From Desulfobacteraceae bacterium Eth-SRB1 (GTDB taxonomy: Bacteria > Desulfobacterota > Desulfobacteria > Desulfobacterales > ETH-SRB1), in contig RPGP01000001.1 in assembly GCA_004193555.1 (NCBI GenBank), positions 524,156 to 588,155 of the forward strand: a DNA stretch of 64,000 nt, written 5' to 3'. The notes under the pieces are model-generated. The model was given only the letters and a program-made list of their open reading frames with translations, was not told the origin of the DNA and made no database searches. The position numbers and the translations under genes are program-made. Below, piece after piece: positions 4,170-31,464 of this stretch; within the stretch, counting starts at the first letter, position 1, and each line of letters begins with the position of its first letter.

Positions 4170-4198
4170 CCTACAGCCTACCCACCTGAGTAGTTACC
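4170..4198. repeat. Half copy of the AGGCTGAAGG miniature element
   Basis: Eleven bases after the gspH stop lies the reverse complement of one element end (GGTAACTACTCAGGTGG plus GGCTGTAGG). The opposite end is not visible, so this is a truncated copy or solo end. Confidence 0.6.
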
Positions 4199-12129: not shown

Positions 12130-12561
12130 TCATTCAATGTTGGACGTTCGTCTTTTAAAATAACCCCATATGGTATAAATGCGACCTGTGAACAAAGTGT
12201 CGATTTCACTAAAATTGGTATTTCCGACAATTTCTGATACACGATTCTGGCTCAATCCAATTGTTTCTGAGATTTTTTCGTGAGGCCATCCCATCCAAAA
12301 AAACGGCGGGCAGGCATGCTTTTCAGCTACCTGGAAAACTGTAAATCCTTTCGATAAATCAGTATTTACCAGTTTTACCAATTTTGGCATTTTTAATAGA
12401 TGGTTTGATAAGTCGGCATTTAGCTGATTTGCCAATCCTGGCATTTCCGCCAAATGGTCGGATAAAGTCCTCTGCGGAACCCTTAATCTATTTGCAATCC
12501 TTTCCTGTGGCAAATCAGAAACCACACCATTAGCATAAAGATTGACGAAGTTCAGTTGCAA
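12130..12561 (-). CDS. Helix-turn-helix protein fragment of a ParB/methylase-associated type
   Basis: This 143-residue ORF contains repeated HTH-like blocks: VPQRTLSDHLAEMPGLANQL, DLSNHLLKMPKLVKL and DLSKGFTVFQVAEKHACPP, ending with WPHEKISETIGLSQNRVSEI. Similar blocks sit in larger ParB-like or DNA-methylase-linked proteins, so this may be the DNA-binding piece of one. A degenerate copy lies at 7810-7975. The start is not secured and no ribosome site stands out. It could be a remnant rather than a working gene. Confidence 0.5.
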   Translation of the reverse strand: MQLNFVNLYANGVVSDLPQERIANRLRVPQRTLSDHLAEMPGLANQLNADLSNHLLKMPKLVKLVNTDLSKGFTVFQVAEKHACPPFFWMGWPHEKISETIGLSQNRVSEIVGNTNFSEIDTLFTGRIYTIWGYFKRRTSNIE

Positions 12562-12680
12562 CTACTCAGGTGGATAGGCTGAAGGCTGTTAGGAAAAAAC
12601 GTATTTTCTTTTGACCCCTTCAGCCATGCCAGAGGCGCAAGCTTCGGTCTAATCAGCTTCAGCCTGACTACGTGAGCAGT
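12559..12680. mobile_element. AGGCTGAAGG miniature element, copy without the usual flanks
   Basis: Ends AACTACTCAGG and CGTGAGCAGT are imperfect inverted repeats and the GGCTGAAGGCTG core is present. The 8-bp GCAGGAAC flanks of the other copies are missing, so this is an independent insertion or a rearranged copy. Confidence 0.7.
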
Positions 12681-12701
12681 CCGTTTTGCCTTGATATTTT
12701 A

Positions 12702-16890: not shown

Positions 16891-16898
16891 GCAGGAAC

Positions 16899-16991
16899 GT
16901 AACTACTCAGGCGGATAGGCTGAAGGCTGAAGACTGTTAGGGGAAAGCGCATTTTTTCTGACCCCTTCAGCCTGGCTACGTGAGTAGTTGC
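16899..16991. mobile_element. Miniature element, short 93-bp copy, with 8-bp direct flanks
   Basis: Ends GTAACTACTCAGG and CGTGAGTAGTTGC are inverted repeats. GCAGGAAC lies directly outside both ends (16891-16898 and 16992-16999), as a target duplication would. Confidence 0.85.
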
Positions 16992-16999
16992 GCAGGAAC

Positions 17000-17342: not shown

Positions 17343-17353
17343 TTATTTTAAAA

Positions 17354-17743
17354 TTATTCCAGAACTTCAACAAACCTGGAATCCAGGATCACGGGATCAT
17401 TGGTGATAATTGGCAAGTCAAGGTATCTGGCGGTTGCGGCAATAAGCCGGTCATGCAACTCGGGGATATCGTTGATCTCGGAAGCGGTTTTAAGGATCTC
17501 AAAGCTCAGCGGCTCAAACTGATAATTTTGGCTTTTGAAAAGTTCCTCGGTTTGAAGCAGGCTGATATCGATCCTGTTCTTTTCAAATAGATAGAGAACC
17601 TCCATCAAAACAATGGCAGGAATGATGATGGTTGCCTCTCCTTTGTCGGCGGATTGGAAAGCCTGATGGGATCTGTTATTGATTACCTTTTTGCCCATCA
17701 TAAATTTTACAAGGGCTTGAGTGTCGGTTACAAAACTATCCAT
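17354..17743 (-). CDS. PIN-domain (VapC-like) toxin
   Basis: The start at 17743 overlaps the antitoxin end and removes an unlikely six-residue extension. This 129-residue protein has PIN acidic residues in VTDTQALVKF (first Asp), the glutamate of VLMEVLYLFE, ELHDRLIAATARYL (third acidic site) and ITNDPVILDSR. PIN toxins are Mg-dependent RNases acting mostly on tRNA or rRNA. It is the second gene of a two-gene operon. Confidence 0.88.
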   Translation of the reverse strand: MDSFVTDTQALVKFMMGKKVINNRSHQAFQSADKGEATIIIPAIVLMEVLYLFEKNRIDISLLQTEELFKSQNYQFEPLSFEILKTASEINDIPELHDRLIAATARYLDLPIITNDPVILDSRFVEVLE

Positions 17744-17975
17744 TGCCAAACTCCTGGTCAACGTGCTTCCAGGTTTGCTGTTTAAACTCCTTCAGATCGG
17801 CAAAGTCTATATCATGCCCCTTAAGAATACCTTCAAGTTTGATTAGCTTTTTTGCTTCAAGCTTTTTCTTATGCCTCATAAAATCAATAAAATTGGCAAC
17901 AGCATCTAAATCATGTTCGGTAAATCCAAACAGCTTATTATAAATCTCATGTTTTGTTAAGGCTGCCTTATTCAT
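17736..17975 (-). CDS. Antitoxin partner of the PIN toxin at 17354
   Basis: The start at 17975 follows an AAGGAAGG site. It is a 79-residue highly charged protein (HEIYNKLFGFTEHDLDAVAN, FIDFMRHKKKLEAKKLIKL) with no helix-turn-helix I can name. Its position, size and overlap with the PIN gene define it as antitoxin. It is read directly from promoter cassette B, about 30 nt upstream. Confidence 0.75.
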   Translation of the reverse strand: MNKAALTKHEIYNKLFGFTEHDLDAVANFIDFMRHKKKLEAKKLIKLEGILKGHDIDFADLKEFKQQTWKHVDQEFGNG

Positions 17976-18005
17976 TCTTACACCTTCCTTTGGGAAAATA
18001 AATGT

Positions 18006-18035
18006 ATAATAAACCAATTTTTTCAGGAACGTCAA
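18006..18035 (-). promoter_or_regulatory. Repeated promoter cassette, copy B, driving the vapBC-like operon
   Basis: Minus strand: TTGACG (18030-18035), 18 bp, TATTAT (18006-18011), about 30 nt before the antitoxin ATG. Its upstream sequence is homologous to the other cassettes, but no miniature element is inserted here. Confidence 0.8.
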
Positions 18036-18823
18036 GAAATTTACCATTGCCCTTCTTAATCCCAATAGAGAAAATTTTGATATTTGCAAAGCACCACTGT
18101 CATTTTGCAATCCGGCGCAGAACTTACTCTAAATTATTGAGCGAACCACGCCTGGCGTGGTGTAATCAGACGGCATCCCCGCCTGCCATCGCCATGCATA
18201 CCATGTGGTGTATGCACTCCGTTGTCCGGCACTGGCAGGCAGGATGGATGCCTTGCTCCAAAATAAATGAGCAACCAGCGACACACTATGGAGCAAGCAA
18301 ACCGTGTTTGCGTTAATACGAAGGCAATCTGCCGCAGTCGGTGCAATGCAGGCAGGTTCATCTTGTTCGCGATTATCCCTCGATTACGACTCTGTGGTTT
18401 TCCTCAAGCCCTTCATACCCCCTCGCGGTGACCGCCTGCCAGGTGGTCGAACAACTCATGCTGCCGAGCAGAGACCACGATTCATGCCATATATAGATTT
18501 TAAGATAAAAAATTTCACATTTTCTTGATATTTCCCCTCACCCTGACCCTCTCCCACAAGGGGAGAGTGGAATAAGCTGTATGAAATTATTTATCTGAAA
18601 ATCTATAGCTCTGGAACTGAAAACCGAAGGCTGAAGAAAAAAAGTAGGCCGCCTTCAGCATAAAATAAAAACAAGCTTCTACTGTTTTTCCGAGACTTCG
18701 CTTGGAAAAATACTTTTGAATGAAGCAGAGACTCATCAAAAAACATTTTTTAGATTTCGTATATTCCCATTTATATATTGCCCGCATTTTGCGGTCAAGC
18801 ACTTTCTTCCGCATAATGGGCGC
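18036..18823. other. Diverged copy of the island repeat, no gene
   Basis: 18036-18110 matches the upstream part of the promoter cassette. 18256-18420 matches 24590-24820 (both contain GAGCAACCAGCGACACACTA), i.e. the right half of the island repeat. The sequence to 18823 holds a CCCTCTCCC/GGGGAGAG hairpin and nothing coding. Confidence 0.6.
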
Positions 18824-19075
18824 ATGCAAAAATCGACATTTTCTTCGCATTACGATATATTCAAGACTAAACTGGTGACCATGCGTAAAGCCGCAGGGCT
18901 GACACAAAGGCAATTGGCCAAAAGACTGAATCGGGAACATTCTTTTGTCAGCCGTATTGAGTTGGGAGAACGTCGTTTAGACGTAGTTGAGTTCTATTGG
19001 GTCTGCCGTGCTTGTGATCAAGATCCAAAATCAATCTACGATGAACTCTTAAAAGAATTCGCCAAACTCGATTGA
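18824..19075 (+). CDS. Xre-family transcriptional regulator
   Basis: The ATG at 18824 is chosen because translation upstream of it is not protein-like. This 83-residue protein is mostly one helix-turn-helix: TMRKAAGLTQRQLAKRL and HSFVSRIELGERRLDVVEF, with the recognition helix at SFVSRIE. It is the only plus-strand gene inside the TA island. It could be a solitary antitoxin-type repressor; no partner toxin is adjacent. Confidence 0.85.
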   Translation: MQKSTFSSHYDIFKTKLVTMRKAAGLTQRQLAKRLNREHSFVSRIELGERRLDVVEFYWVCRACDQDPKSIYDELLKEFAKLD

Positions 19076-19127
19076 CGCAAAAAAAATCACAACATTTTCC
19101 TTCCGGGCTACTTTCTTTAACGCCTTT

Positions 19128-19310
19128 ATAAAACCAGTAGTATATTATTGTTTATATCGCCGGTTATTACAGGTGTATCTGAATTTGCAGTGTGGGGCAG
19201 AATTAATGACAGCGTAAAAAGAAGAAAGGAGAAAAGTAATATTATTGGATGTGTGCTTTTTGAGTTTTTTATTAGCACAGCAACCTCCGATAAAACCCGA
19301 TTGTCATTTT
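19128..19310 (-). pseudogene. Small signal-peptide/dockerin family gene, copy B
   Basis: The signal peptide and the SDTPVITGDINNN loop are readable, then the sequence jumps to the tail seen in copy A (TAATAATATACTACTGG region). This is an internal deletion. Confidence 0.65.
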
Positions 19311-19322
19311 GATAGCAGGAAC

Positions 19323-19464
19323 GTAACTACTCCGGCGGATAGGCTGAATGCTGAAGGCTGAAGACTGTTAGGAAAAAGCGCATTCTCTTCTGACCCCTTC
19401 AGCCATGCCGGAGGCATGCAAGCTTCAGACTAAACAGCTTCAGCCTGACTGCGTGAGCAGCTAC
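19323..19464. mobile_element. Miniature element, 142-bp copy, with 8-bp direct flanks
   Basis: Ends GTAACTACTCCGG and GCGTGAGCAGCTAC. GCAGGAAC is on both sides (19315-19322 and 19465-19472). Confidence 0.85.
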
Positions 19465-19483
19465 GCAGGAACTTATAAATTTT

Positions 19484-19513
19484 ATTATAGACCTATTTTC
19501 CCTGGAACGTCAA
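19484..19513 (-). promoter_or_regulatory. Repeated promoter cassette, copy C
   Basis: Minus strand: TTGACG (19508-19513), 18 bp, TATAAT (19484-19489). It points through the miniature element into dockerin remnant B. Confidence 0.75.
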
Positions 19514-19585
19514 GAAATTTACCCTTGCCCTGAAATTCCGATATAAGGATTAAACAAAGAAATTTTGATTCCCTGAAAATATTTT

Positions 19586-20046
19586 TTAAATTTTTGCCTG
19601 GTAATTGTCAGCGGGCGGCATGCCGGTATATTTGGTATAAATTGTGTCCGATTGATATATAGATAGTTCTTTAGCAGTCTTACGGACTGGAACATTGGCC
19701 AATATAAAGACTTCATGGGATGGACAAATCCCAAAGTGTGAGCCCACGAAAACGATCAGTTTGTTCCGGTTAAGTATCTTCAGCTTTCGGCGATACATTT
19801 GCCAAGTAGTCTGTTTTCCCAAGGCTTCTAATTTTAATTGGTCCCCTGCCATTTCAAGAAAGCAGTGGTGAGCGCTTTCATGACCATTACCATATAGGCG
19901 TGTACACAAACACCATCTTTGGTTTTTTTCGGTGGGTGCATAAGGTGCCAGTTCTGTTTGACCTCACGAAAAAGTTTGTTTTCTATAAGGCTGCGATCAT
20001 CATAACGATTAAAAGCTATGAATGAACAGAAAAATGGGGTCTTCAT
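19586..20046 (-). pseudogene. Transposase (DDE type) C-terminal remnant, frameshifted
   Basis: The first frame reads RSLIENKLFREVKQNWHLMH, PPKKTKDGVCVHAYM and ALTTAFLKWQ. The sequence continues in another frame from about 19850 as GDQLKLEALGKQTTWQMYRR and LKILNRNKLIVFVG, then HEVFILANVPVRK. This order matches the C-terminal part of a DDE transposase family with the ENxLFREHKQxWHL motif. The N-terminus is missing and no terminal repeats were found. Confidence 0.65.
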
Positions 20047-20274
20047 TAAAAATCAACAGATTTTATCTTTTCAACAAAAGATGCGGATAGTTTTTTTAGC
20101 ATAAAAGCGGGTTTGAGGGAAGACCCATGATTTTATGCGTTTCTATCTTTTTATTTAATAGGACAGGATTAACGGGATAGGCAGGACATTTTATTTTTTA
20201 TTTTCATAACTTCCCTCCTGCCTGCAATGCTTCGCAACGCGAGGCGGGCGGGGATGAAAGTGATGAAGAATAAT

Positions 20275-20708
20275 CTATATTTCTTCTGGTGGATGCGTTC
20301 CCATTATATAGAGTACTCGTCGCAAGTTGATAAGCCCGTCTCTATTCAGACATAGCGCTCCCACGGTAGCACGTCCGATAGGTGTCAATCCGATGATTAA
20401 AGTGTGCAATCTTCATTCCATGCAAAATGGTCACACCATTGCTGTAACCTTGGATGATACAAGGGAACAATATCTCCAATTACAGGATCGCGCCCTTTTG
20501 TTTTTGTGTACTTATGGTTGTTACAACCCTGACAAGCTAAAGCCAGATTTTCAAGCTCTGTTTTACCACCGCGAGAGCGAGGCACAATGTGTTCAACTGA
20601 AAAGGGCTGCATAGCAAAATGCACTTGGCTCCGGCAATATTCACAACAGCCTTTAGCTCGTTCCACTACATCATGTTTTTCTTGGGAGGTGATGTGTTTT
20701 TCAGGCAT
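20275..20708 (-). pseudogene. HNH endonuclease, frameshifted near the C-terminus
   Basis: The main frame (20397-20708) has the zinc-type HNH core: CCEYCRSQ, VEHIVPRSRGGKTELENLAL and CQGCNNHKYTKT. It stops at NEDCTL. One base further, the family's usual ending continues as IIGLTPIGRATVGALCLNRD and LINLRRVLYIMG to a stop at 20275. A one-base insertion near 20400 therefore truncates the last ~40 residues. The catalytic core is whole, so a shortened active enzyme is conceivable. It overlaps its upstream neighbour by 8 nt. Confidence 0.75.
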
Positions 20709-21102
20709 AAGCGGGAGGCTGTATCCCCATATTTTCCATCAGTTCGGTAAGAGAAACTTTTCGATAACGTGCCAATTCTGATAGATATTGCATACGCTGA
20801 GCTTCCAGGTTTTCGATTTGGTCTGTTAAGCGCAACAATTCGCTATATTCTTCTGAACTTAGTGACTCATCCCGCCTTTTATCAATTAGTTCATCATATC
20901 GTTTCTGAACTTCTACCGGCAATCCTTGATTAATTTTCACTATAAATTGGGCTTCGGTTTGTGACAATCTGTGAACAAGGCGTTGTGCCCGGAGATTGAT
21001 GACCTGAGAAACAAATTGTTCTATCTCATGCTTGTTCAATTGACCGACGGCTTTCAACAAATTATCTGTAGATAACTCTGTTTCTACTTTAACGATTGCC
21101 AT
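20701..21102 (-). CDS. Conserved hypothetical protein paired with the HNH gene
   Basis: The start at 21102 follows a GAGGA site. This 133-residue protein is helical and charged (VETELSTDNLLKAVGQLNKH, LSSEEYSELLRLTDQIENLE) and probably coiled-coil in its second half. The overlap with the HNH gene shows co-translation. I do not recognise a named family; the pair resembles other HNH loci where a small helical protein precedes the nuclease. Confidence 0.7.
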   Translation of the reverse strand: MAIVKVETELSTDNLLKAVGQLNKHEIEQFVSQVINLRAQRLVHRLSQTEAQFIVKINQGLPVEVQKRYDELIDKRRDESLSSEEYSELLRLTDQIENLEAQRMQYLSELARYRKVSLTELMENMGIQPPAYA

Positions 21103-21248
21103 TTTTATATCCTCAAACAAACGAATTAGATTAATACATCTGTCTTCTTTTCAGGGTATCCGCTTTTATTTTTTAACGTTTTATCCCAACAGTCCATAAT
21201 TTGCAAATAATTTATCGCAAGATAAAACTTTCCTCAGACAACATAAGG

Positions 21249-21570
21249 GACATCCTATAATCCTTCTGTCAAGCATAAAACATGCATTTTTTAATAAACG
21301 AATTCAATAAGATAGGAGAGCGGCTAATTTCTGGGCGTACTTCTCCTTATAGAACCTACGGGACGTTCGTGCAGAACGTGCACAAAATCAAGCATAGCTT
21401 TTCCCCTACCTTTCTAATGGATATATTCTGTAATTTGAGTCCATACTTTTATGCAATCTCTAAAAGTTGAATTTTCAGTTACAACATCTTCCAGGTTCAC
21501 AATGCCATTATTGTTTATATCGCCGGTTATTACAGGTGGATTTGAATTTGCAGTGTGGGGCAGAATTAAA
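21249..21570. repeat. About 0.32-kb direct repeat, copy 1
   Basis: It matches 23666-23970 in the same orientation with small indels. The two copies enclose the UPF0175/DUF3368 and Phd/PIN modules. Its right half is a dockerin-gene remnant. Confidence 0.85.
21416..21570 (-). pseudogene. Small signal-peptide/dockerin family gene, copy C (dockerin part)
   Basis: It reads NPPVITGDINNNGIVNLEDV then VTENSTFRDCIKV and WTQITEYIH stop. This shows the probable natural C-terminus of the short family members. The signal peptide is missing. Confidence 0.65.
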
Positions 21571-21583
21571 AAGTGCGTACGGG

Positions 21584-21632
21584 ACGTTGTTACCTTCTGA
21601 CCTTATTGCAAATATTCCCCTAATTTTTTGTT
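21584..21632. repeat. Short direct repeat bracketing a TA module, copy 1
   Basis: The motif ACGTTGTTACCTTCT ... CCCCTAATTTTTTGTT recurs at 22628-22672. The pair brackets the UPF0175/DUF3368 module 21794-22569. Confidence 0.8.
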
Positions 21633-21793
21633 ATTGTCATACAAGTTAAATAAATGCAAAACCGGATTTCACCCCCAGTACGATAGTGCCTGCCTACAAG
21701 GCGGGATAAATCTTAAATATTACTTATTCGAGCCTTGATCTTGCCCGCTTTTCTTTTCAGCTTTTTAAGTTTCTCCCGAGGATTGTCCCCATT

Positions 21794-22279
21794 TTACGCT
21801 TCACCCGCCTTTTTTAATGTTTTCTCAATTATTTTATCACTGATTCTGAACTTCTTTATTATGAGTTCATCAACGAGAGGCCGAACTTCATGAATTAGGC
21901 CGAGGTTCTTGGCCAAAATGAACAGGCCGAGCAATCCCATTATTTCAAAACCAGCGATGACGGCACTCTTTCTGGCCTTTTCCTCATCCAGTAATATCAG
22001 ATCGGCCTCCAGTTCTCTGGCCAGAACAAGAACTTCAGCCTCCCCCTTTTCAAGACTACCCAGCAGAAAAGCTACCTGTATTTTGTCCTTAACCGGCTTT
22101 GGCTCAATCCAGACAGCTTCTTTTATGACTTTAGATCCGGGTTTTCCTTTGCCCCTTTCCACTACTTCCTTAAAGACCTCTTCAGGGATAAAAACCCTGG
22201 AAAATGTTTCTTTGAGCAGGTCTAATCTCCCTATTTTTACCAACCCAATCAGGATTGTGGAATCACTGACAACAATCAT
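21794..22279 (-). CDS. DUF3368 PIN-like toxin
   Basis: This 161-residue protein begins VSDSTILIGLVKIGRLDLLK with the first PIN aspartate. It then shows IPEEVFKEVVERGKGKPGSK, GEAEVLVLARELEADLILLD with EExA, and the terminal FRISDKIIEKTLKKAG, all typical of DUF3368. The ATGA overlap with the upstream UPF0175 gene indicates coupled translation. A second pair of the same type is at 26483-27273. Confidence 0.88.
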   Translation of the reverse strand: MIVVSDSTILIGLVKIGRLDLLKETFSRVFIPEEVFKEVVERGKGKPGSKVIKEAVWIEPKPVKDKIQVAFLLGSLEKGEAEVLVLARELEADLILLDEEKARKSAVIAGFEIMGLLGLFILAKNLGLIHEVRPLVDELIIKKFRISDKIIEKTLKKAGEA

Positions 22280-22569
22280 TTTTTGAGCCTTTCGGAAAGG
22301 TTATCAGCGGTTTCAAACTCACGTTTCATTTCATCCTGATCATAATCAACAACCGGAACACCATTATCGCTAAGATATTCTATGAAATCCCATTTAGAAA
22401 GACCTGAGAGTTCAGACGCCCTCCCCAATGAAAGAACTTTTTCCTTGAAACATTTCAGTGCGAAAAGCTTCCTTGATTCTCTAGCTATTTTTTCCTTAGT
22501 CAACCCAGAGGCAGAAAGGGAAAGGTATAGCTTTTCCGGTAAATCTATAACGGCCTGGACATTCCCCAT
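22276..22569 (-). CDS. UPF0175 family antitoxin
   Basis: This 97-residue protein contains the UPF0175 helix-turn-helix: FKEKVLSLGRASELSGLSKW, then DFIEYLSDNGVPVVDYDQDE. It is the usual partner of DUF3368 toxins and probably the DNA-binding autoregulator. It ends in the ATGA overlap with the toxin. Confidence 0.88.
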   Translation of the reverse strand: MGNVQAVIDLPEKLYLSLSASGLTKEKIARESRKLFALKCFKEKVLSLGRASELSGLSKWDFIEYLSDNGVPVVDYDQDEMKREFETADNLSERLKK

Positions 22570-22627
22570 TTTTTTATCCCCACTTTACACAATTTTATGT
22601 TCAATATATTATTTTTCTCCGGGGGTA

Positions 22628-22672
22628 ACGTTGTTACCTTCTTATTGCAAATATCCCCCTAATTTTTTGTTT
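22628..22672. repeat. Short direct repeat bracketing a TA module, copy 2
   Basis: Partner of 21584-21632. Confidence 0.8.
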
Positions 22673-22720
22673 TCGCTTTCTCCAGCAAGTCACCACCTGT
22701 TTTTATATTCTGTCCAAATT

Positions 22721-23110
22721 TCACCAGAAAAGTTTAACAGCATAATCCGTGAATGCTCGATCTTTGCTGACTAAAGCCAGGTTTTCTTCAATTGCCTGAG
22801 AAATTAATAATCTATCGAAAGGGTCGCTGTGATGCATTGGCAAATTGTCTAACATAAAAATATGATTTGGCGAAACAGGCAGAATTTGCAAATTGTTAAT
22901 ATTTTGCTGATTTTCAACCAAATCTTTCAATGAGCGCTTTAGTTTCAATTTTCCGAGCTGCATCTTGATTTGCATTTCCCATATACTTACAATGCTCAGG
23001 ATTAAACGGTTGGCACGGTTTTCACAGGCATCGAGCGCTTTTTCTGATAGTTTGTCGGGTTCGCCTGACCACCTGCGGATAAAAACGTGAGTATCAAGCA
23101 ACAGTTTCAT
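22721..23110 (-). CDS. PIN-domain toxin, PilT/VapC type
   Basis: This 129-residue protein starts LLLDTHVFIRRW (first Asp) and has LSIVSIWEMQIKMQLGKL (conserved Glu) and MHHSDPFDRLLISQAI (third acidic cluster), then LVSKDRAF. It is the PIN subgroup paired with Phd/YefM antitoxins. The ATGA overlap with the upstream gene couples translation. Confidence 0.93.
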   Translation of the reverse strand: MKLLLDTHVFIRRWSGEPDKLSEKALDACENRANRLILSIVSIWEMQIKMQLGKLKLKRSLKDLVENQQNINNLQILPVSPNHIFMLDNLPMHHSDPFDRLLISQAIEENLALVSKDRAFTDYAVKLFW

Positions 23111-23343
23111 TTTTCTCCTAACCAGAATGCATCAGATAAAGGCTTGTCAAAATCTTCACTTGTCCAGATTTCACCCTTATTCAGACCTGCTATTCTCTTT
23201 TTCCCGAACTTGGAAATTGCCGTTAATTTTGCAAAAGGTTTGTTGTCTTTTTTAATAATGATATCGTCACCTTTTGAAATTAAGAGCAACAATTCAGGCA
23301 ACTGTTTTTGCATTTCATGTGATGTTACAACCCTTGTAGACAT
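23107..23343 (-). CDS. Phd/YefM-type antitoxin
   Basis: The start at 23343 is set by the GGAGG site 5 nt upstream; the longer frame runs through non-coding sequence. The 78-residue protein has the Phd fold: VVTSHEMQKQLPELLLLISK then GDDIIIKKDNKPFAKL. Its basic and acidic C-terminus would wrap the PIN toxin. Confidence 0.9.
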   Translation of the reverse strand: MSTRVVTSHEMQKQLPELLLLISKGDDIIIKKDNKPFAKLTAISKFGKKRIAGLNKGEIWTSEDFDKPLSDAFWLGEK

Positions 23344-23561
23344 ATAGCCTCCTCTCAGGGTTATCGGCTTATGCGTTCCCACGCTGGAGCGTGGGAACGA
23401 GGTAAAATATAAATAACCCCTTAATATTACACTAAGAACTGTTGGCATTTTCTCGTTTTTCAAAGGATTTGTCAACACATACTTTCAAAAGTGCCTGACC
23501 GCCGTTTTCGTTTTTCCTACCGGCAGCAACTTGGCTACTTTTATATTAGGCTGAAAAGAAC

Positions 23562-23638
23562 ATCCTTAAATACTTAAATAACTCAATCGTCCAGATGACA
23601 GCCTGCTTCTTTCGCTATCTTCTCTCCTCTTTTTACTG
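23562..23638. repeat. 77-bp direct repeat, copy 2
   Basis: Partner of 11973-12049, same orientation. Confidence 0.8.
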
Positions 23639-23665
23639 GGGAAAACCTACTGGGAAAACCTACGA

Positions 23666-23970
23666 GACATCCTATAATCCTTCTGTCAAGCATAAAACAT
23701 GCATTTTTTAATAAACGAATTCAATAAGATAGGAGAGCAGCTAATTTCTGGACGTACTTATCCTTATAGAACCTACGTTCGTGCAGAACGTGCACAAAAT
23801 CAAGCATAGCTTTTCCCCTACCTTTCTAATGGATATATTCTGTAATTTGAGTCGATACTTTTATGCAATATTTCAAAGTTGATTTTTCAGTTACAACATC
23901 TTCCAGGTTCACAAGGTCATTATTGTTTATCGCCAATTTTTACAGGTGGATTTGCGTTAGAGTTACAGGG
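23666..23970. repeat. About 0.32-kb direct repeat, copy 2
   Basis: Partner of 21249-21570. Confidence 0.85.
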
Positions 23971-24085
23971 CAGAATTAATGACAGCGTCAAAAGAAGAAG
24001 GGAGAAAAGTAATATTATTGGATGTGTGCTTTTTGAGTTTTTTACCATCACAGCGACCTCCGATAAAACCCGATTGTCATTTTGA
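23828..24085 (-). pseudogene. Small signal-peptide/dockerin family gene, copy D
   Basis: The signal peptide, then SNANPPVKIGD, a frameshift, then NNNDLVNLEDVVTEKSTLKY and CIKVSTQITEYIH stop. It is nearly complete but broken once. Confidence 0.7.
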
Positions 24086-24095
24086 TAGCAGGAAC

Positions 24096-24230
24096 GTAAC
24101 TACTCAGGCGGATAGGCTGAAGGCTGAAGACTGTCAGGAAAAAGCGCATTCTCTTCTGACCCCTTCAGCCATGCCGGAGGCATGCAAGCTTCAGTCTAAA
24201 CAGCTTCAGCCTGACTACGTGAGTAGTTAC
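24096..24230. mobile_element. Miniature element, 135-bp copy with perfect ends and 8-bp duplication
   Basis: Ends GTAACTACTCA and TGAGTAGTTAC are perfect inverted repeats of 11 bp. GCAGGAAC flanks both sides (24088-24095, 24231-24238). This is the best-preserved copy. The interior carries nested GGCTGAAGGCTGAAG and CTTCAGCC stretches and no ORF. Confidence 0.9.
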
Positions 24231-24249
24231 GCAGGAACTTATAAATTTT

Positions 24250-24279
24250 ATTATAGGCCAATTTCTCCTGAAACGTCAA
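24250..24279 (-). promoter_or_regulatory. Repeated promoter cassette, copy D
   Basis: Minus strand: TTGACG (24274-24279), 18 bp, TATAAT (24250-24255). Confidence 0.75.
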
Positions 24280-25246
24280 GAAATTTACCCTTGCCCTTCT
24301 AATCCCCATAGACAATATTTTGATATTTACAAAGCGCCCCCGTCGTTTTGATAGCCCCGGAGTTCTATGGAATCCTAATACATCACGGATGCCGGCACTA
24401 TGCCCAACAAAGCAGCCCCATCTTCGTCGCTGTATTCAATACGGGTTCCATAATTCTTATACTTCATAGTCTTCATGGCTTCAGCCCTGCTTGTTTTAAA
24501 AATTACGGCTTGCACTCCGAGTGCCGGGAATAAGGCCTCAATACGCTGCCATTTCAAGCTGGCAGGAACAGGTTTGCCGACTTAGGGCTCGCTCAAAAAT
24601 AAACGAGCAACCAGCGACACACTATGGAGCAAGCAAACCGTGTTTGCATAAACGTGACGGCATCATGGATGCCTTGATCCATACTATGGGACACGGAACA
24701 TAGGAGACGTTGGCACTCTGTCACTGCTGCCCATTTTCGGTGCAGTGCAGGCAGATTCATCTTGTTCGGTATCATCCCTTGATTACGACTTTGTGGTTCT
24801 CCTCAAGCCCTTCATACCCCAGATATTTTATCTGAACAAGAGCTTGCTAAAGTAATTACCCTGCTCAAAAGAACAAATTAAAAGATGAACGTCCAACATC
24901 GAACATCGAATAATGATGTCGCTTCGCTCTTCAAATTATTTTAAAATCGAAGAACTGAAATAAAACATAATTTTATAATTTCCTATACAACAAGAAGCAA
25001 AGAAGATATCAAAATGGGCTATCAGTTTTTAAAAAACCTCTTTGAGCAGATAGAGAAAAATTACCGTCCAAAAGATACACCCAAAAAACCAAAATCGCCG
25101 AGGAGAGGCATAAAATAGGGGATGTTCATTGGATTATTGGTTATTTTTACTCCAGCAATGAAAAACACGTTCATAAATAAGTAAGTAACACGGGCTGTTT
25201 CGGGGGCACACTCAAGGGCTGACCCCAGATCCCCACTTGTAGCGCT

Positions 25247-25516
25247 TCAAGCGGGAATTCCTGAGTTGGGGTTCGCTTTGACTTTCTCAAATAGCCATTC
25301 ATTAATTAGAACACTTTCAGCCTTATTCAGCGTTTTTGCTCTGTTCTTAATCATGGCATATAAATCCATGTCGATCCCTACATACTTTCTCTTTTTTAAT
25401 ACGAATTGCATCTTTTTTTCTTCCTGAATATCATCAAACTCCTCAAAGTCATGTTCATCCCAAAAATCAGATGCTTCATATACTGACATATCTCTTATAT
25501 TTTCACTTTTTTCCAT
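25247..25516 (-). CDS. brnA: BrnA/CopG-like antitoxin
   Basis: The start at 25516 has an AAGGAG site inside the end of the toxin gene. The 89-residue protein has the acidic SVYEASDFWDEHDFEEFDD block and a ribbon-helix-helix-like end (KRKYVGIDMDLYAMIKNRAK). It follows the toxin, as brnA does in brnTA. Its similarity to named BrnA proteins is moderate; position and partner make the case. Confidence 0.75.
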   Translation of the reverse strand: MEKSENIRDMSVYEASDFWDEHDFEEFDDIQEEKKMQFVLKKRKYVGIDMDLYAMIKNRAKTLNKAESVLINEWLFEKVKANPNSGIPA

Positions 25517-25790
25517 ACCGTCTCCTTTCACCTGGACTCATATCCCTGGCGCTAACTATAAGAGCCTTATTCCCGAGTTTCTTGATAAAAAAGATCGATA
25601 AATATCTTCCATTAGCGGTTTTACCAAGCGCATTATACAAATGTTCTCCTTCGACCCTGCCCTTTTCTTTCTTGAATATCCTGCAGTTTCCACGTAAAAC
25701 TTCTTCTACTTCGGAAGGTAAAACATTATGCTTCCATGCAAGTTTTTCAAGTATCTTGTCGAGCCATACAATATCATCTATAATAATCAT
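25503..25790 (-). CDS. brnT: BrnT-like RelE-fold toxin
   Basis: This 95-residue protein contains VWLDKILEKLAWKHNVLPSE, LYNALGKTANGRYLSIFFI and the terminal ALIVSARDMSPGERRRYGKK, the conserved end of BrnT ribonuclease toxins. It is the first gene of the pair and overlaps the antitoxin by 14 nt. Confidence 0.85.
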   Translation of the reverse strand: MIIIDDIVWLDKILEKLAWKHNVLPSEVEEVLRGNCRIFKKEKGRVEGEHLYNALGKTANGRYLSIFFIKKLGNKALIVSARDMSPGERRRYGKK

Positions 25791-25824
25791 GCATTCTCCC
25801 TCTATCTATTATGAAAAACCTACG

Positions 25825-25935
25825 TTCATTCCGAGCGTGCATGGCTTGTTTTGCAGATCTTTAACATTAACAATCGGTTTTTACATCTGATGAACATAAC
25901 TCAAGTTTCGCACCCTTAATTTCTAAGCAATGTCA
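25825..25935. repeat. 111-bp direct repeat, copy 1
   Basis: It recurs at 30353-30463 in the same orientation with about five mismatches. Confidence 0.85.
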
Positions 25936-25980
25936 AGGCTGTAACTGGCCGAATTAATTTGTCAAGTCCCCCTATCCTTT

Positions 25981-26165
25981 CTTTCCTTATTAATCAAGCT
26001 TTCAAGAAAAAGCCAAGACCTCTCTCTTTTTTAGACAGGATTGACTGGAATCTTATATCCTGCTTATCCTTGCTTACCCGCCTCTGGAAGGTTAATCCTG
26101 TCAAAAACAATCTGTTCAATTAACCGCATATGACAACTGTTTAAGATGTTAAGCCTGGCCTCTAA
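25981..26165. repeat. 185-bp direct repeat left of a UPF0175/DUF3368 module
   Basis: It is nearly identical to 27286-27471. The two copies sit on either side of the module 26483-27273. Confidence 0.92.
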
Positions 26166-26231
26166 AAGGTCAAAATGTTTTATGATAATTGGATTCATCA
26201 GCCAGATGCGGTTCCCAGCAATGTTATCTGC

Positions 26232-26319
26232 GTCATTGCGAGGAGCATAGCGACGAAGCAATCTAATGAACACAAGTAGTTATACCGCACGAGATTGCTT
26301 TGCACCGCTTGCAATGACA
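26232..26319. repeat. 88-bp palindromic repeat (CATTGCGAGGAG type)
   Basis: GTCATTGCGAGGAG and AAGCAATCT on the left mirror AGATTGCTT and TTGCAATGAC on the right. It is a widespread deltaproteobacterial interspersed palindrome. Confidence 0.8.
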
Positions 26320-26482
26320 GCTTTTTCGACTTTTTACGAGTGCATCTTCTTTAACTCTGTAACAATCCCACTTTGAATTGTTTTGTCTATTAAACCAAGC
26401 TGTTGGGCAATATAAGTTTGAGCTTTAAGTCCAGCGGCTCAGCCTTTAGCTACAATGTGAAAATCAGCACTGCGATCTTCTT

Positions 26483-26977
26483 TCAATTGTCAGGGAACAT
26501 CCTCCTATAAAGTTTATCACTGATTCTGAAACCTGCTTCTCTCAACTGTTTGACAAGCTTTTTTTTATCTATGCCAAATCCCATTTCAATTGATAGATCC
26601 ATAACCCCCAAGACCCCCATCGTATTTACACCCATTAACGCTGCTTTCTCCCTTGCTGTCCGTTCATCTATCAGCGCATAATCAAATCCTGATTCCTTAC
26701 AAAGGATGATAACCTCGGATTCTCCTTTGCCTAAATTTGTTGTTAAGGCATTAACAGCTATCTCATCATTTACTGTCTTCATGGATATCCAACCATCTTT
26801 TACCGCAGATTCGGTCTCGGTAGAACCGGCTTCACCTCTTCCTTTCACCACGACCTCCTCATACACAGCGCGAGGAATATATATCTCAACAAACACCTCT
26901 TTTAATAGTCCAAATATCTCTATTTGTGCCAATCCAATAAGACAACTGCTGTCTACTGCAACCCGAAAAACTTTCAT
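26483..26977 (-). CDS. DUF3368 PIN-like toxin, second copy
   Basis: This 164-residue protein has VAVDSSCLIGLAQIEIFGLL, IPRAVYEEVVVKGRGEAGST, GKGESEVIILCKESGFDYAL with IDER, and FRISDKLYRRMF at the end. It aligns block by block with the toxin at 21794 but is clearly diverged, so it is not a recent duplicate. The ATGA overlap with its antitoxin is kept. Confidence 0.88.
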   Translation of the reverse strand: MKVFRVAVDSSCLIGLAQIEIFGLLKEVFVEIYIPRAVYEEVVVKGRGEAGSTETESAVKDGWISMKTVNDEIAVNALTTNLGKGESEVIILCKESGFDYALIDERTAREKAALMGVNTMGVLGVMDLSIEMGFGIDKKKLVKQLREAGFRISDKLYRRMFPDN

Positions 26978-27273
26978 TTTTCGACCATCTCGTTATATCT
27001 GTCTATCGGTTGTTGGTCTTTTTCAAAACTCTTCTCGCCATACTCATAGGCAGGGATGTCGTGTTCCTTTAAAACCTCCATAAATCCGACTCTGCTCATT
27101 TCTGTCAGTTCTGTCGCCTTCCCAAGCGATATGGTTCCTTCTTGAAATAAGAGGATCGCCAATGCTATTTTTAATTTCTTTTTAACCCATTCTGGTTTCT
27201 CCAGTCCCCTCATGGCAAATATTATGTCTTGAGGAAGCTTTATTTCTATCGGTTCCATTTTCGTTGTATTCAT
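26974..27273 (-). CDS. UPF0175 family antitoxin, second copy
   Basis: The start at 27273 follows an AAGGGA site. This 99-residue protein has LPQDIIFAMRGLEKPEWVKK, then LFQEGTISLGKATELTEMSR and the HTH end GFMEVLKEHDIPAYEYGEKS. It is the partner of the DUF3368 toxin downstream. Confidence 0.88.
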   Translation of the reverse strand: MNTTKMEPIEIKLPQDIIFAMRGLEKPEWVKKKLKIALAILLFQEGTISLGKATELTEMSRVGFMEVLKEHDIPAYEYGEKSFEKDQQPIDRYNEMVEK

Positions 27274-27285
27274 GTTTTATCCCTT

Positions 27286-27471
27286 CTTTCCTTATTAATC
27301 AAGCTTTCAACAGAAAGCCAAGACCTCTCTCTTTTTTAGACAGGATTGACTGGAATCTTATATCCTGCTTATCCTTGCTTACCCGCCTCTGGAAGGTTAA
27401 TCCTGTCAAAAACAATCTGTTCAATTAACCGCATATGACAACTGTTTAAGATGTTAAGCCTGGCCTCTAAC
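27286..27471. repeat. 186-bp direct repeat right of a UPF0175/DUF3368 module
   Basis: Partner of 25981-26165. Its left end overlaps the last codons of the PIN gene 27467-27904. Confidence 0.92.
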
Positions 27472-27904
27472 CTGTCGATGTCACTGGTTGCCAAACAGAA
27501 AGGCCAAGTTTTTTCAGAGCTGCGCTGAATTTACGGTCAAATGTTGCGACAATGGCTTTCTTTTTAGCTGTGCAAACGGACGCAACAATAGCATCGCCAT
27601 AATCCTGAATCTTGTCAGGCCAATACGAAAAAAGGATTTTCAGGTTTACTTCGTGGACAATTTCTATCCCGGGCATAGCAACGAAATTATCGATCATATC
27701 CTTTATTACCGGTTGCGGAACATTATAAACCCTGTCCAGCACATAAACAAATTCGGTTATGACATTCTGTGGACATAAAACCGACAATCGCAATCCGGCT
27801 GCATTTTCAAAAAGCGCGGCTATTTTGTCCTGCTGGTCCTTGTTTCTATCCGTTACAAAGGATATCAGCGCATTGGTATCTATAACAACAGTGTATCTTT
27901 TCAC
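27467..27904 (-). CDS. PIN-domain toxin partnered with AbrB-type antitoxin
   Basis: This 145-residue protein begins with GTG overlapping the antitoxin stop (GTGA). PIN residues are in VVIDTNALISFVTDR (Asp), VITEFVYVLDRV (Glu) and KIQDYGDAIVASVC with IVATFDRKFSAALK (last acidic sites). Its last two codons lie inside the 186-bp repeat, so the repeat insertion or duplication defined the gene's end. Confidence 0.9.
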   Translation of the reverse strand: MKRYTVVIDTNALISFVTDRNKDQQDKIAALFENAAGLRLSVLCPQNVITEFVYVLDRVYNVPQPVIKDMIDNFVAMPGIEIVHEVNLKILFSYWPDKIQDYGDAIVASVCTAKKKAIVATFDRKFSAALKKLGLSVWQPVTSTG

Positions 27905-28134
27905 TGGTATTTTTCCATCCGTCGTTTTATGGATAATTTTATGTCGTTTTTGATATCCCCATTACCTGTTTTGACAGTGTTTCTAAATTTTAAAAAGTTT
28001 TTCTGCATGGGCAAAACCACGATCTTCCCATTTTCAACCTTCCATTCAAGCGTATCATGGATGGATAGGCCGAGATACTCTCGAAGGGCTTTAGGTATGG
28101 TTGTCTGATACTTGGAAGTTATAGTTGTTCGCAT
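27901..28134 (-). CDS. AbrB/SpoVT (VapB-like) antitoxin
   Basis: This 77-residue swapped-hairpin protein starts MRTTITSKYQTTIPKALREY, then LGLSIHDTLEWKVENGKIVV, the textbook AbrB N-terminal domain. An AGAGGGA ribosome site is upstream. The basic C-terminus would contact the PIN toxin. Confidence 0.92.
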   Translation of the reverse strand: MRTTITSKYQTTIPKALREYLGLSIHDTLEWKVENGKIVVLPMQKNFLKFRNTVKTGNGDIKNDIKLSIKRRMEKYQ

Positions 28135-28195
28135 GACATGATCCCTCTTTTTTTATTTTTGCATGACGCCCTGCATTAATTCTTACAAAACATTA

Positions 28196-28423
28196 TTAGC
28201 GTAAGAAATGATAATTGTCAAGGGCAAGATAAGGGCGATCAACCTTCTCCACCTTTCCATTGTTGTTTATATCGCCGGTTATTACAGGTGTATCTGAATT
28301 TGCAGTGTGGGGCAGAATTAATAACAGCGTTAAAAGAAGAAGGGAGAAAATTAATATTATTGGATGTGTGCTTTTTGAGTTTTTTATTAGCACAGCAACC
28401 TCTGATAAAATCAGATTTATCAT
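28196..28423 (-). CDS. Small secreted protein with one dockerin-like calcium loop, copy E
   Basis: This 75-residue frame is the only uninterrupted family member: a signal peptide (about 1-43, core PIILIFSLLLLTLLLIL), then SDTPVITGDINNNGKVEKVD and RPYLALDNYHFLR. It has the GDINxNGxV calcium loop of dockerins but only one of the two usual repeats. Promoter cassette E lies upstream with the miniature element in the 5' leader. It could be expressed, or it may be a truncated remnant that happens to stay open. Confidence 0.45.
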   Translation of the reverse strand: MINLILSEVAVLIKNSKSTHPIILIFSLLLLTLLLILPHTANSDTPVITGDINNNGKVEKVDRPYLALDNYHFLR

Positions 28424-28438
28424 TTTGATAGCAGGAAC

Positions 28439-28580
28439 GTAACTACTCAGGTGGATAGGCTGAAGGCTGAAGGCTGAAGACTGTCAGGAAAAAACGCATT
28501 CTCTTCAGACCCCTTCAGCCATGCCGGAGGCATGCAAGCTTCAGTCTAAACAGCTTCAGCCTGACTGCGTGAGCAGCTAC
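28439..28580. mobile_element. Miniature element, 142-bp copy with 8-bp direct flanks
   Basis: Ends GTAACTACTCAGG and GCGTGAGCAGCTAC. GCAGGAAC at 28431-28438 and 28581-28588. It is 7 bp longer than the 24.1-kb copy, apparently one extra AGGCTGA unit. Confidence 0.88.
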
Positions 28581-28599
28581 GCAGGAACTTATAAATTTT

Positions 28600-28629
28600 A
28601 TTATAGGTCAATTTTTCCTGAAACGTCAA
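28600..28629 (-). promoter_or_regulatory. Repeated promoter cassette, copy E
   Basis: Minus strand: TTGACG (28624-28629), 18 bp, TATAAT (28600-28605). Confidence 0.75.
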
Positions 28630-29613
28630 GAAATTTACCCTTGCCCTTCTAATCCCCATAGACAATATTTTGATATTTGCAAAGCGCCCCCGTCGTTTTG
28701 ATAGCCCCGGAGTTCTATGGAATCCTAATACATCACGGATGCCGGCACTATGCCCAACAAAGCAGCCCCATCTTCGTCGCTGTATTCAATACGGGTTCCA
28801 TAATTCTTATACTTCATAGTCTTCATGGCTTCAGCCCTGCTTGTTTTAAAAATTACGGCTTGCACTCCGAGTGCCGGGAATAAGGCCTCAATACGCTGCC
28901 ATTTCAAGCTGGCTGGAACAGGTTTGCCGACTTAGGGCTCGCTCAAAAATAAACGAGCAACCAGCGACACACTATGGAGCAAGCAAACCGTGTTTGCATA
29001 AACGTGACGGCATCATGGATGCCTTGATCCATACTATGGGACACGGAACATAGGAGACGTTGGCACTCTGTCACTGCTGCCCATTTTCGGTGCAGTGCAG
29101 GCAGATTCATCTTGTTCGGTATCATCCCTTGATTACGACTTTGTGGTTCTCCTCAAGCCCTTCATACCCCAGATATTTTATCTGAACAAGAGCTTGCTAA
29201 AGTAATTACCCTGCTCAAAAGAACAAATTAAAAGATGAACGTCCAACATCGAACATCGAATAATGATGTCGCTTCGCTCTTCAAATTATTTTAAAATCGA
29301 AGAACTGAAATAAAACATAATTTTATAATTTCCTATACAACAAGAAGCAAAGAAGATATCAAAATGGGCTATCAGTTTTTAAAAAACCTCTTTGAGCAGA
29401 TAGAGAAAAATTACCGTCCAAAAGATACACCCAAAAAACCAAAATCGCCGAGGAGAGGCATAAAATAGGGGTTTCCGTTACGACTTTTAGTTGTAAAGTT
29501 CTTGTAAAAATGGCAAGAAAAACTTTCGCCATGTACATAAAACCTTTTGTATAAAGACTTTGCGACGTTTTTTAGTTTTCGAAATTCCAGTTCATCCGGG
29601 TTAGATTTAATGG

Positions 29614-30012
29614 TTACCAAAAACTTCGAACATTTTTATAAGCAAGAATTCGTTCATCTTTTGTCAATATCGTGGCATTTTCTTCTCTTGCCGTTGCGAC
29701 AATAATTTGATCAGCCGGGTCATTATGAAAAGGTTGGGGTAGCACAGTTGAACGGTATGATAAAACAGGAGAAAGAGGAACTAATCTGAGTTTTGGCATA
29801 TCGAGGGCAGTATTTATCCAATCTTCTGGATCACACGAAATGCCAACTCTCTTTTTTTCAAGGAGTTTGCTGAATTCCCATGGAGAAATTGCGGACAATA
29901 GTATCTCATCATACATCTCTGCATTGCCGATTAACCTTTTGACCCTTTTTGATAACTTATGTGGGTTCATGTTCCACCAGATCCAGGTATGTGTATCAAG
30001 TAGATACATCAT
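29614..30012 (-). CDS. PIN-domain toxin, PilT/VapC type
   Basis: The start at 30012 gives an ATGA overlap with the antitoxin. This 132-residue protein has MYLLDTHTWIWW, LSAISPWEFSKLLEKKRV and PFHNDPADQIIVATAREE, then ILTKDERI, the four PIN acidic motifs. It belongs to the same subgroup as the toxin at 22721. Confidence 0.93.
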   Translation of the reverse strand: MMYLLDTHTWIWWNMNPHKLSKRVKRLIGNAEMYDEILLSAISPWEFSKLLEKKRVGISCDPEDWINTALDMPKLRLVPLSPVLSYRSTVLPQPFHNDPADQIIVATAREENATILTKDERILAYKNVRSFW

Positions 30013-30242
30013 TTGCAGGCATCCCACATTTCCTCGCCCAATGGTGAAATTACATCTTTTTCAAAAACAAGAGCATTAGAAAGTCTGCCCGGCTTGGGGA
30101 TTATACCAGAAGTGCGATAAGGTGATATTTGGGCTAATGGCTTACCTCGTTTTGTTATGACAATCACTTCATGTGTTTTGGCAACCTGGTCCAAGATTTT
30201 TAAGGCATGCGATTTAAATTGGCTTATCCCCATGGTTTGCAT
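30009..30242 (-). CDS. Phd/YefM-type antitoxin
   Basis: This 77-residue protein starts MQTMGISQFKSHALKILDQV and has VIVITKRGKPLAQI, the Phd/YefM DNA-binding domain. A GAGGAGG site precedes the ATG. It has its own promoter just upstream. Confidence 0.92.
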   Translation of the reverse strand: MQTMGISQFKSHALKILDQVAKTHEVIVITKRGKPLAQISPYRTSGIIPKPGRLSNALVFEKDVISPLGEEMWDACK

Positions 30243-30265
30243 ATAGACACCTCCTCTACAAAAGG

Positions 30266-30294
30266 ATAATAGTCAATCTAAATGGTCAAGTCAA
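30266..30294 (-). promoter_or_regulatory. Promoter of the Phd/PIN operon at 30 kb
   Basis: Minus strand: TTGACT (30289-30294), 17 bp, TATTAT (30266-30271). It is not a copy of the repeated cassette. Confidence 0.65.
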
Positions 30295-30352
30295 GGTCAA
30301 AAAAAGCATCAATTCTAATTATAGCGTGTTATTCACCACGAGATAGGGGACA

Positions 30353-30463
30353 TTCGTTCCGAGCGTGTCTGGCTTGTTTTGCAGCTCTTTAACATTAACA
30401 ATCGGTTTTTACGTCTGATTAACATAACTCAAGTTTCGCACCCTTAATTTCTAAGCAATGTCA
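30353..30463. repeat. 111-bp direct repeat, copy 2
   Basis: Partner of 25825-25935. It passes directly into dockerin remnant F. The rest of 30243-30744 is unassigned. Confidence 0.85.
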
Positions 30464-30464
30464 G

Positions 30465-30600
30465 TGGATTTGCGTTAGAATTACAGGACAGAATTAATGA
30501 CAGCGTCAAAAGAAGAAAGGAGAAAATTAATACTATTGGATGTGTGTTTTTTGGATTTTTTATTAGCACAGCAACCTCCGATAAAACCTGATTTATCGGA
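30465..30600 (-). pseudogene. Small signal-peptide/dockerin family gene, copy F (signal peptide only)
   Basis: It retains the SKNTHPI-like basic start and hydrophobic core, then is cut at the junction with the 111-bp repeat. No promoter cassette is attached. Confidence 0.55.
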
Positions 30601-30744
30601 CCTGCTATAACCTACGTGAGTTACAAACCATTTACCAAAAATGCTTGCCCCGTTAAATCAATATTAACGGATAAATTTTCTGGTTTTTCTTTTTTGTATT
30701 CTTTTTGTAATATTGCATTGTAATTTTACAAAATAGTTGTATTG

Positions 30745-30969
30745 TCAAGCTGATGCTGCCTGATAAATTACCGGTCGATATTCCGGTAGAGGAATAGGCT
30801 TACTTTCTGATCGTGCAGCCTCCAGCCATATCTTTTTAGCCAGTTGGACCTCATGTAACGCCTCATCGGGTGTTTCACCAAATGCAGAGCATGACTCAAG
30901 ATCGGGGATATCGGCGATATAACCTTCGTCATCCTCTGAATAAAAAATGTTGATATGATAATCGCGCAT
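30745..30969 (-). CDS. hicB: HicB-type antitoxin
   Basis: This 74-residue protein has the HicB degenerate RNase H fold: YHINIFYSEDDEGYIADIPD, LESCSAFGETPDEALHEVQL and AKKIWLEAA. No separate DNA-binding tail is seen; it is the short HicB form. It follows hicA by 2 bp. Confidence 0.93.
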   Translation of the reverse strand: MRDYHINIFYSEDDEGYIADIPDLESCSAFGETPDEALHEVQLAKKIWLEAARSESKPIPLPEYRPVIYQAASA

Positions 30970-30971
30970 TA

Positions 30972-31220
30972 TTAATCCTCCAATTTAAGATTATGTTTTT
31001 CAACCAGTTTTAGAAACTGCCGCATTTGATATGGCTTTGCTTGACCTTTGACATTCTGAAGGTTTACGAGTTCAGGAATGTCTGGCCGGGAGAAAATGTG
31101 ATGACTACCTTCAGTTCTCAACAGCTCAAAACCAAAACCTATAACAAGGTTTACCATATCAGCGAATCTTATGTTTTTAGAACCATCAATTAATTTTTTA
31201 AGCAATTTGCGTCTTTTCAT
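30972..31220 (-). CDS. hicA: HicA-type mRNA interferase toxin
   Basis: The start at 31220 (MKRRKLLKKLIDGSK) fits the family; an ATG four codons upstream is possible. The 82-residue protein has the double-stranded-RNA-binding-like fold with the catalytic histidine in RTEGSHHIFSRPDIPEL, and ends QAKPYQMRQFLKLVEKHNL. It is transcribed from promoter cassette F through a miniature-element copy. Confidence 0.92.
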   Translation of the reverse strand: MKRRKLLKKLIDGSKNIRFADMVNLVIGFGFELLRTEGSHHIFSRPDIPELVNLQNVKGQAKPYQMRQFLKLVEKHNLKLED

Positions 31221-31261
31221 ATTTCGTAACATTTACATCATAAATGTTTAAAAATCAAGAA

Positions 31262-31375
31262 CTGCTCAGGATAGGTTTAAGGCTGAAGACTGTCAGGAAA
31301 AAGCGCATTTTGAAACCATGTGACCCCTTCAGCCTTCAGTCTAAACAGCTTCAGCCTGACTGCGTGAGTAGTTGC
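31262..31375. mobile_element. Miniature element, copy with eroded left end
   Basis: The left end AACTGCTCAGG has lost its GCAGGAAC flank; the right end GTGAGTAGTTGC is followed by GCAGGAAC at 31376-31383. Confidence 0.75.
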
Positions 31376-31394
31376 GCAGGAACTTATAAGTTTT

Positions 31395-31424: not shown

Positions 31425-31464
31425 AAAATTTACCCTTGCCCTTCTAATCCAAATGTATTTTAAT

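What the first reader, a model, noticed from the sequence alone, without database searches (positions are those of the whole stretch)
24088..24238. Miniature element family with 11-bp inverted ends and an 8-bp target duplication
Seen: the best copy (24096-24230) has perfect ends GTAACTACTCA/TGAGTAGTTAC and GCAGGAAC on both sides. Copies at 16899, 19323 and 28439 have the same flanks, meaning one insertion followed by duplication of the larger unit. Copies at 12559, 4170 and the gspH palindrome have other flanks, so the family also moved independently. Inference: a MITE mobilised by a transposase that makes 8-bp duplications.
Basis: partly seen in the sequence, partly recalled or inferred. Interest (0 to 1): 0.6.

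Follow-up and report, generated by a model that had tools for sequence, protein, structure and literature searches.

The report
Miniature IS66-type transposon with lost gene
The short repeat is a real gene-less jumping element that carries the end sequences of an IS66-family insertion sequence, and its full-length cousins in other bacteria carry the gene found inside the puzzling 'intervening sequences' of bacterial ribosomal RNA, which links those two kinds of mobile DNA.

Summary
At 24096-24230 lies a 135-bp element with perfect 11-bp inverted ends and an exact 8-bp target duplication, GCAGGAAC. Its own genome holds about 45 copies, and the family occurs in at least four phyla. Over 97 independently flanked copies, duplication of exactly 8 bp is overwhelming: 28 perfect against 0.27 expected, with other lengths at or near background. 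A target without the copy was found in relatives.

The MITE inference is supported, and the transposase type can be named. An IS66-family insertion sequence in a relative (L290, 1588 bp, one 491-aa transposase) has both ends exactly GTAACTACTCAGG and an exact 8-bp duplication. A published, actively transposing ISBst12-group IS66 element (ISDge4) has nearly the same ends and an 8-bp duplication.

Unexpectedly, the longest elements with the MITE's ends (439-483 bp, several with 8-bp duplications) encode a 23S rRNA intervening-sequence protein (S23p, PF05635). Four miniature copies keep fragments of that gene. So the family most likely descends from S23p-carrying cargo elements moved in trans by ISBst12-type IS66 transposases.

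No transposase with these ends was found in the window's own genome. The window's subtype carries no recognisable S23p remnant. The link to IVSs actually inside rRNA genes is untested.

The parts
24088..24095 (.). left target-site duplication GCAGGAAC
   Evidence: sequence; 8-bp statistics
24096..24230 (+). best miniature element copy, 135 bp; left end type A (GTAACTACTCAGG), right end type B (GTAACTACTCACG); perfect 11-bp terminal inverted repeats, 28-bp imperfect arms, internal hairpins
24231..24238 (.). right target-site duplication GCAGGAAC
16899..16991 (+). paralogous copy of the same insertion, internally deleted (93 bp), same GCAGGAAC flanks
19323..19464 (+). paralogous copy of the same insertion (142 bp), same flanks, decayed ends
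28439..28580 (+). paralogous copy of the same insertion (142 bp), same flanks
31260..31375 (+). fifth paralogue; right flank GCAGGAACTTATAA kept, left end and left flank lost
12558..12683 (+). independent copy with other flanks (126 bp), no 8-bp duplication left
4171..4197 (-). lone type-A end

Best explanation
The feature is one copy of a family of non-autonomous DNA transposons (MITEs) with IS66-family ends. An ISBst12-type IS66 transposase (one large DDE protein) acting in trans recognises GTRACTRYTCA-type ends and inserts the element into AT-rich DNA with an 8-bp staggered cut, leaving 8-bp duplications (supported by comparison; the biochemistry is inferred). The family probably arose from larger cargo elements of 440-480 bp with the same ends that enclose a gene for the 23S rRNA intervening-sequence protein (S23p); loss of that gene gave the miniature forms. 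In this window one insertion into GCAGGAAC was then copied several times with the surrounding larger repeat. What S23p does for the element is not known.
For: 8-bp duplication: 28 of 97 copies perfect and 45 of 97 at 7/8 or better, against 0.27 perfect expected. About 45 copies in this genome; 33 of 94 relatives positive, up to 97-98% identical across families of the order; exact end in Nitrospirota, Nitrospinota, Planctomycetota and Desulfobacterota. Site without the element in relatives. IS66 element L290: 1588 bp, ends exactly GTAACTACTCAGG, duplication CATTTTCT, ORF PF03050 E 3.8e-48 and NF033517; further IS66 elements with GTAACTATTCAGC ends and perfect 8-bp duplications (L256, L265, L281, L284); exact-end element at six places in G107, linked to an IS66 ORF. 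ISDge4 of the ISBst12 group, TIRs GTGACTACTCAGCA/GTAACTGCTCAGCA, DR of 8 bp, seen to transpose (PMC12898284). S23p ORFs inside the same ends with perfect duplications: L139 GTTACTTG, L212 AAATTGAA, L247 TTAAATTC; PF05635 E 7.7e-33. S23p fragments inside miniature copies L122, L129, L166, L168.
Against: No IS66 element with these ends was found in the window's own genome; its single IS66 has GTAAGCGCTCA ends, and many MITE-rich assemblies have no PF03050 hit, although repeats are often lost from metagenome assemblies. The window-type 135-172 bp subtype has no recognisable S23p remnant, so its descent from the S23p element rests on shared ends and arms. Only 13 bp are shared with the exact-end IS66 element.
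Confidence: 0.85

Rival explanations
1. S23p itself, not an IS66 transposase, drives movement: the S23p element is autonomous and the miniature copies use S23p in trans.
For: S23p is the only ORF ever found between paired ends of this arm type; S23p genes occur in 17 of 18 relatives searched, whereas IS66 is patchy. Ralph and McClelland's proposal that the IVS ORF codes for a mobility component is reported in PMC4990558.
Against: S23p is a 118-aa four-helix bundle with no known nuclease or DDE fold; its solved relatives are 2gsc and 2rld. The ends and the 8-bp duplication match IS66 elements exactly. G077 has the miniature elements but no PF05635.
Confidence: 0.08
2. Chance association: S23p genes merely became trapped between copies of a pre-existing IS66 MITE, and the MITE has nothing to do with S23p in origin. 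(This concerns only the origin part of the best explanation; IS66-type movement would still hold.)
For: Only 6 of 56 S23p loci have both IS66-type ends; most window-type copies carry no S23p remnant.
Against: Five S23p elements have the ends and the GGCTGAAG-type arms at the same distance around the ORF in different phyla; three have 8-bp duplications around the whole unit, so they moved as one; control 1 of 598. A second S23p subfamily (L199) has IS66-like ends and a 7/8 duplication.
Confidence: 0.25
3. Not a transposon but a structural RNA or regulatory hairpin (transcription terminator or REP-like) spread by recombination.
For: Both strands fold far better than shuffles (z -5.6 and -6.3).
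Against: Exact 8-bp duplications at dozens of unrelated sites and sites lacking the element in relatives show insertion by staggered cut.
Confidence: 0.03

Closest known systems
IS66 family, ISBst12 group (e.g. ISDge4 of Deinococcus geothermalis)
   Same: Ends GTRACTRCTCAG, 8-bp target duplication; related IS66 elements with these ends in the same order encode one DDE transposase.
   Different: The window element is 135 bp with no transposase ORF; sequence identity to L290 is limited to the 13-bp ends.
23S rRNA intervening sequences (IVS) with S23p ORF (Coxiella burnetii, Leptospira)
   Same: Longest family members (439-483 bp) enclose an S23p gene between complementary arms, as in the 428-nt Coxiella IVS (PMC4990558).
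   Different: The window copy lies outside rRNA and has lost the gene; its S23p-bearing cousins have IS66-type ends and 8-bp duplications. No rRNA-borne copy was found here (20 other S23p loci gave no Rfam match).
Bacterial MITEs in general
   Same: Short, ORF-less, terminal inverted repeats, target duplications, many copies.
   Different: I found no earlier description of this family in the papers held: the 11-mer end occurs only in unrelated contexts.

Membership tests
MITE | short, no transposase gene, terminal inverted repeats | tested here: met
   135 bp, perfect 11-bp ends, no transposase ORF
MITE | target-site duplication of fixed length at independent sites | tested here: met
   8 bp in 28/97 perfect, expected 0.27
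MITE | multi-copy, dispersed, with empty sites | tested here: met
   about 45 copies; site without the element in relatives
MITE | mobilised by an autonomous element with the same ends | tested here: inconclusive
   autonomous IS66 elements with identical 13-bp ends exist in the same order, but none was found in this genome; trans-mobilisation was not tested experimentally
IS66 family, ISBst12 group | ends beginning GTRA with 8-bp duplication | tested here: met
   8-bp IS66 duplications also in PMC3281130 and PMC12898284
IS66 family, ISBst12 group | single IS66 transposase ORF within the element | tested here: not met
   window element has no transposase ORF; therefore filed as an IS66-type non-autonomous element, not as an IS
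S23p / IVS element | PF05635 ORF between complementary arms | tested here: not met
   met in L139, L183, L212, L239, L247 but not in the window copy
S23p / IVS element | located in a 23S rRNA gene | tested here: not met
   the window copy lies among protein genes and duplicated repeats; 20 other S23p loci gave no Rfam match
S23p / IVS element | excised from the transcript by RNase III | not testable with these tools
   needs RNA data

The most novel reading that the evidence does not exclude
The intervening sequences of bacterial 23S rRNA descend from, or belong to, S23p-carrying cargo elements moved by ISBst12-type IS66 transposases. That would explain their scattered, horizontally mobile distribution and make the MITE studied here an IVS-type element that lost its gene.
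Probability: 0.3. Interest if true: 0.8.

Novelty: new variant of a known kind. Interest (0 to 1): 0.58.

Why it matters
How rRNA intervening sequences and their S23p gene spread has been an open question since about 1990 (PMC4990558). S23p genes that sit between IS66-type ends with exact 8-bp duplications offer a concrete and testable route. The same ends mark a miniature element family shared by at least four phyla, and genes annotated only as 'four helix bundle protein' can now be examined as cargo of mobile elements.

Tried and rejected
A two-ended search for long elements with the full A/B ends in this genome and in 93 stretches from other genomes gave nothing above about 480 bp. Pairs of neighbouring miniature copies flanking host genes (L022, L012, L010) were considered as composite elements and dropped, because ordinary host genes lie between them. 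The genome's own IS66 (L032) was considered as mobiliser and set aside because its ends are GTAAGCGCTCA. A viral-contig scan for the end found nothing. Papers with the end sequence or with S23p plus mobile-element terms: none relevant. An Rfam scan of S23p loci to find rRNA-borne copies gave no match.

Full report
Observation. Window 24096-24230 is bounded by GTAACTACTCA and its exact reverse complement, with GCAGGAAC directly repeated outside. Twelve end-like 11-mers lie in the window against 0.37 expected. Four full copies (16899, 19323, 24096, 28439) share flanks and sit in a larger repeat, and a fifth at 31260-31375 keeps the right flank only. The copy at 12558-12683 has other flanks, and 4171-4197 is a lone end. 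I could not find the 'gspH palindrome' as a member.

The family. The window is G000:C1:524156-588155 of a 3.34-Mb, 52-contig assembly. A DNA search and an end pattern find about 45 dispersed copies there, with a left end (A, GTAACTACTCAGGTGGATAGGCTGAAG), a right end (B, GTGACTACTCACGTAGTCAGGCTGAAG) and a variant (C, GTAACTGCTCAGGTTATTAGCCTGAAG). A 172-bp form is 97-98% identical in several families of the order, and 33 of 94 relatives are positive. The A end, exact at 25 specified bases, occurs in Nitrospira and other Nitrospirota, Nitrospinota, Brocadiaceae (Planctomycetota) and many Desulfobacterota. Loci shared exactly between the two collections identify family relatives as Desulfobacteraceae-type MAGs, so the window's organism is probably a sulfate-reducer relative (inference).

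Target duplication. Among 97 copies with both ends, treating the paralogues in the window as one, the flanks match over exactly 8 bp: 28 perfect and 17 with one mismatch, against 0.27 perfect in shuffled pairings. Matches over 4-7 or 9-12 bp stay near background. The perfect duplications are 77% A+T.

Empty site. Copy L022:1501-1578 (duplication AAAAAGTT) lies between a LOG-type gene and a glycosyltransferase gene (names judged by eye from the translations). In relatives the two genes are separated by a shorter stretch without the element: 53 bp in G008 and 45 bp in G007 against 160 bp here. In G014 the flanks align directly across the site. The first copy in the same locus is also missing in G014, though that site has other inserted sequence.

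The transposase. The genome's single PF03050 hit (L032) has ends GTAAGCGCTCA. In the order, a group of single-ORF IS66 elements has ends at or near GTAACTATTCAGC, with perfect 8-bp duplications (L256, L265, L280, L281, L283, L284). L290 is exact: 1588 bp, GTAACTACTCAGG at both ends, duplication CATTTTCT, one 491-aa ORF matching PF03050 (E 3.8e-48) and NF033517. G107 has six different flanks next to the same 124-127 bp GTAACTACTCAGG end, mostly at contig breaks, and one is joined to an IS66 ORF. A published ISBst12-group element, ISDge4, has TIRs GTGACTACTCAGCA and GTAACTGCTCAGCA and an 8-bp repeat and was seen to transpose (PMC12898284). Two other IS66 elements are listed with 8-bp repeats (PMC3281130). 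IS66 with 5'-GTAA ends and 8-bp duplications is also established knowledge.

The cargo. Two Nitrospirota copies of 439 and 472 bp hold an intact ORF that matches PF05635 (23S rRNA-intervening sequence protein, E 7.7e-33) and TIGR02436, and weakly Avd of diversity-generating retroelements. Others with the same ends are L212 (451 bp), L239 and L247; L247's frame is broken. L139, L212 and L247 have perfect 8-bp duplications around the whole unit. Miniature copies L122, L129, L166 and L168 keep N- or C-terminal pieces of the ORF. S23p in Nitrospira and in Desulfobacterota is about 85% identical, which suggests horizontal transfer.

S23p genes in general. For 45 complete S23p genes, the up- and downstream arms are complementary to each other far beyond control: median local score 36 against 15 for swapped arms and 14 for 1500 other ORFs. 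The arm sequences differ widely between genes. Only 6 of 56 S23p loci have both IS66-type ends with at most one mismatch, but the control is 1 of 598. L199 represents another arm type (GTTCACGG) with IS66-like ends and a 7/8 duplication. None of 20 S23p loci gave an Rfam match, so none was shown to lie in rRNA.

Mechanism. Shown: insertion with an 8-bp duplication; shared ends with IS66 elements; S23p elements moving as units; S23p remnants in some miniature copies. Inferred: movement in trans by an ISBst12-type transposase, and descent of the window's subtype from an S23p-carrying ancestor. Unknown: the role of S23p and why the arms stay complementary. The Coxiella paper describes a 428-nt IVS with complementary ends and an S23p ORF and says the origin is unclear, listing a transposition remnant and an ORF needed for mobility as hypotheses (PMC4990558). 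The present data make the first idea testable; they do not prove it.

Verdict. The element is an IS66 (ISBst12-type) MITE; what is new is its breadth across phyla and its link to S23p cargo. The confidence of 0.85 is for IS66-type, trans-mobilised movement; for descent from an S23p-bearing element I would give about 0.7.

Noticed in passing
window 36507-36680: A second, degenerate miniature element of another arm type (GTTCACGGTTTAC...GTGAACTGTGAACC) with a decayed start that resembles the S23p gene start in L199 (GTTCACGG arms, IS66-like ends).
   Followed up: partly
window 36366-36400: GTAACTATTCAGCCACAGATTCACACAGATG: an end identical over 13 bp to IS66 elements of relatives (L256), next to a CACAGAT-type repeat.
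   Followed up: partly
window 16660-31450: A cluster of PIN-domain (VapC-like), antitoxin-like and other small genes (judged by eye from the translations) with repeated segments of 0.4-1.2 kb, several holding the same MITE insertion.
   Followed up: no
L186-L215 and G000 loci L216-L223: S23p (four helix bundle) genes are generally flanked by mutually complementary arms made of short, gene-specific repeated units; why the arms stay matched is unexplained.
   Followed up: partly
L321 (G014), about 270-410 of the reverse strand: Another hairpin-like insertion (CCCTACAACGACACTT...AAGTGACGTTGTAGGG) at the site where G000 holds a MITE.
   Followed up: no
L247: The S23p gene of this element is itself interrupted by sequence that resembles a fragment of the miniature element.
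   Followed up: no
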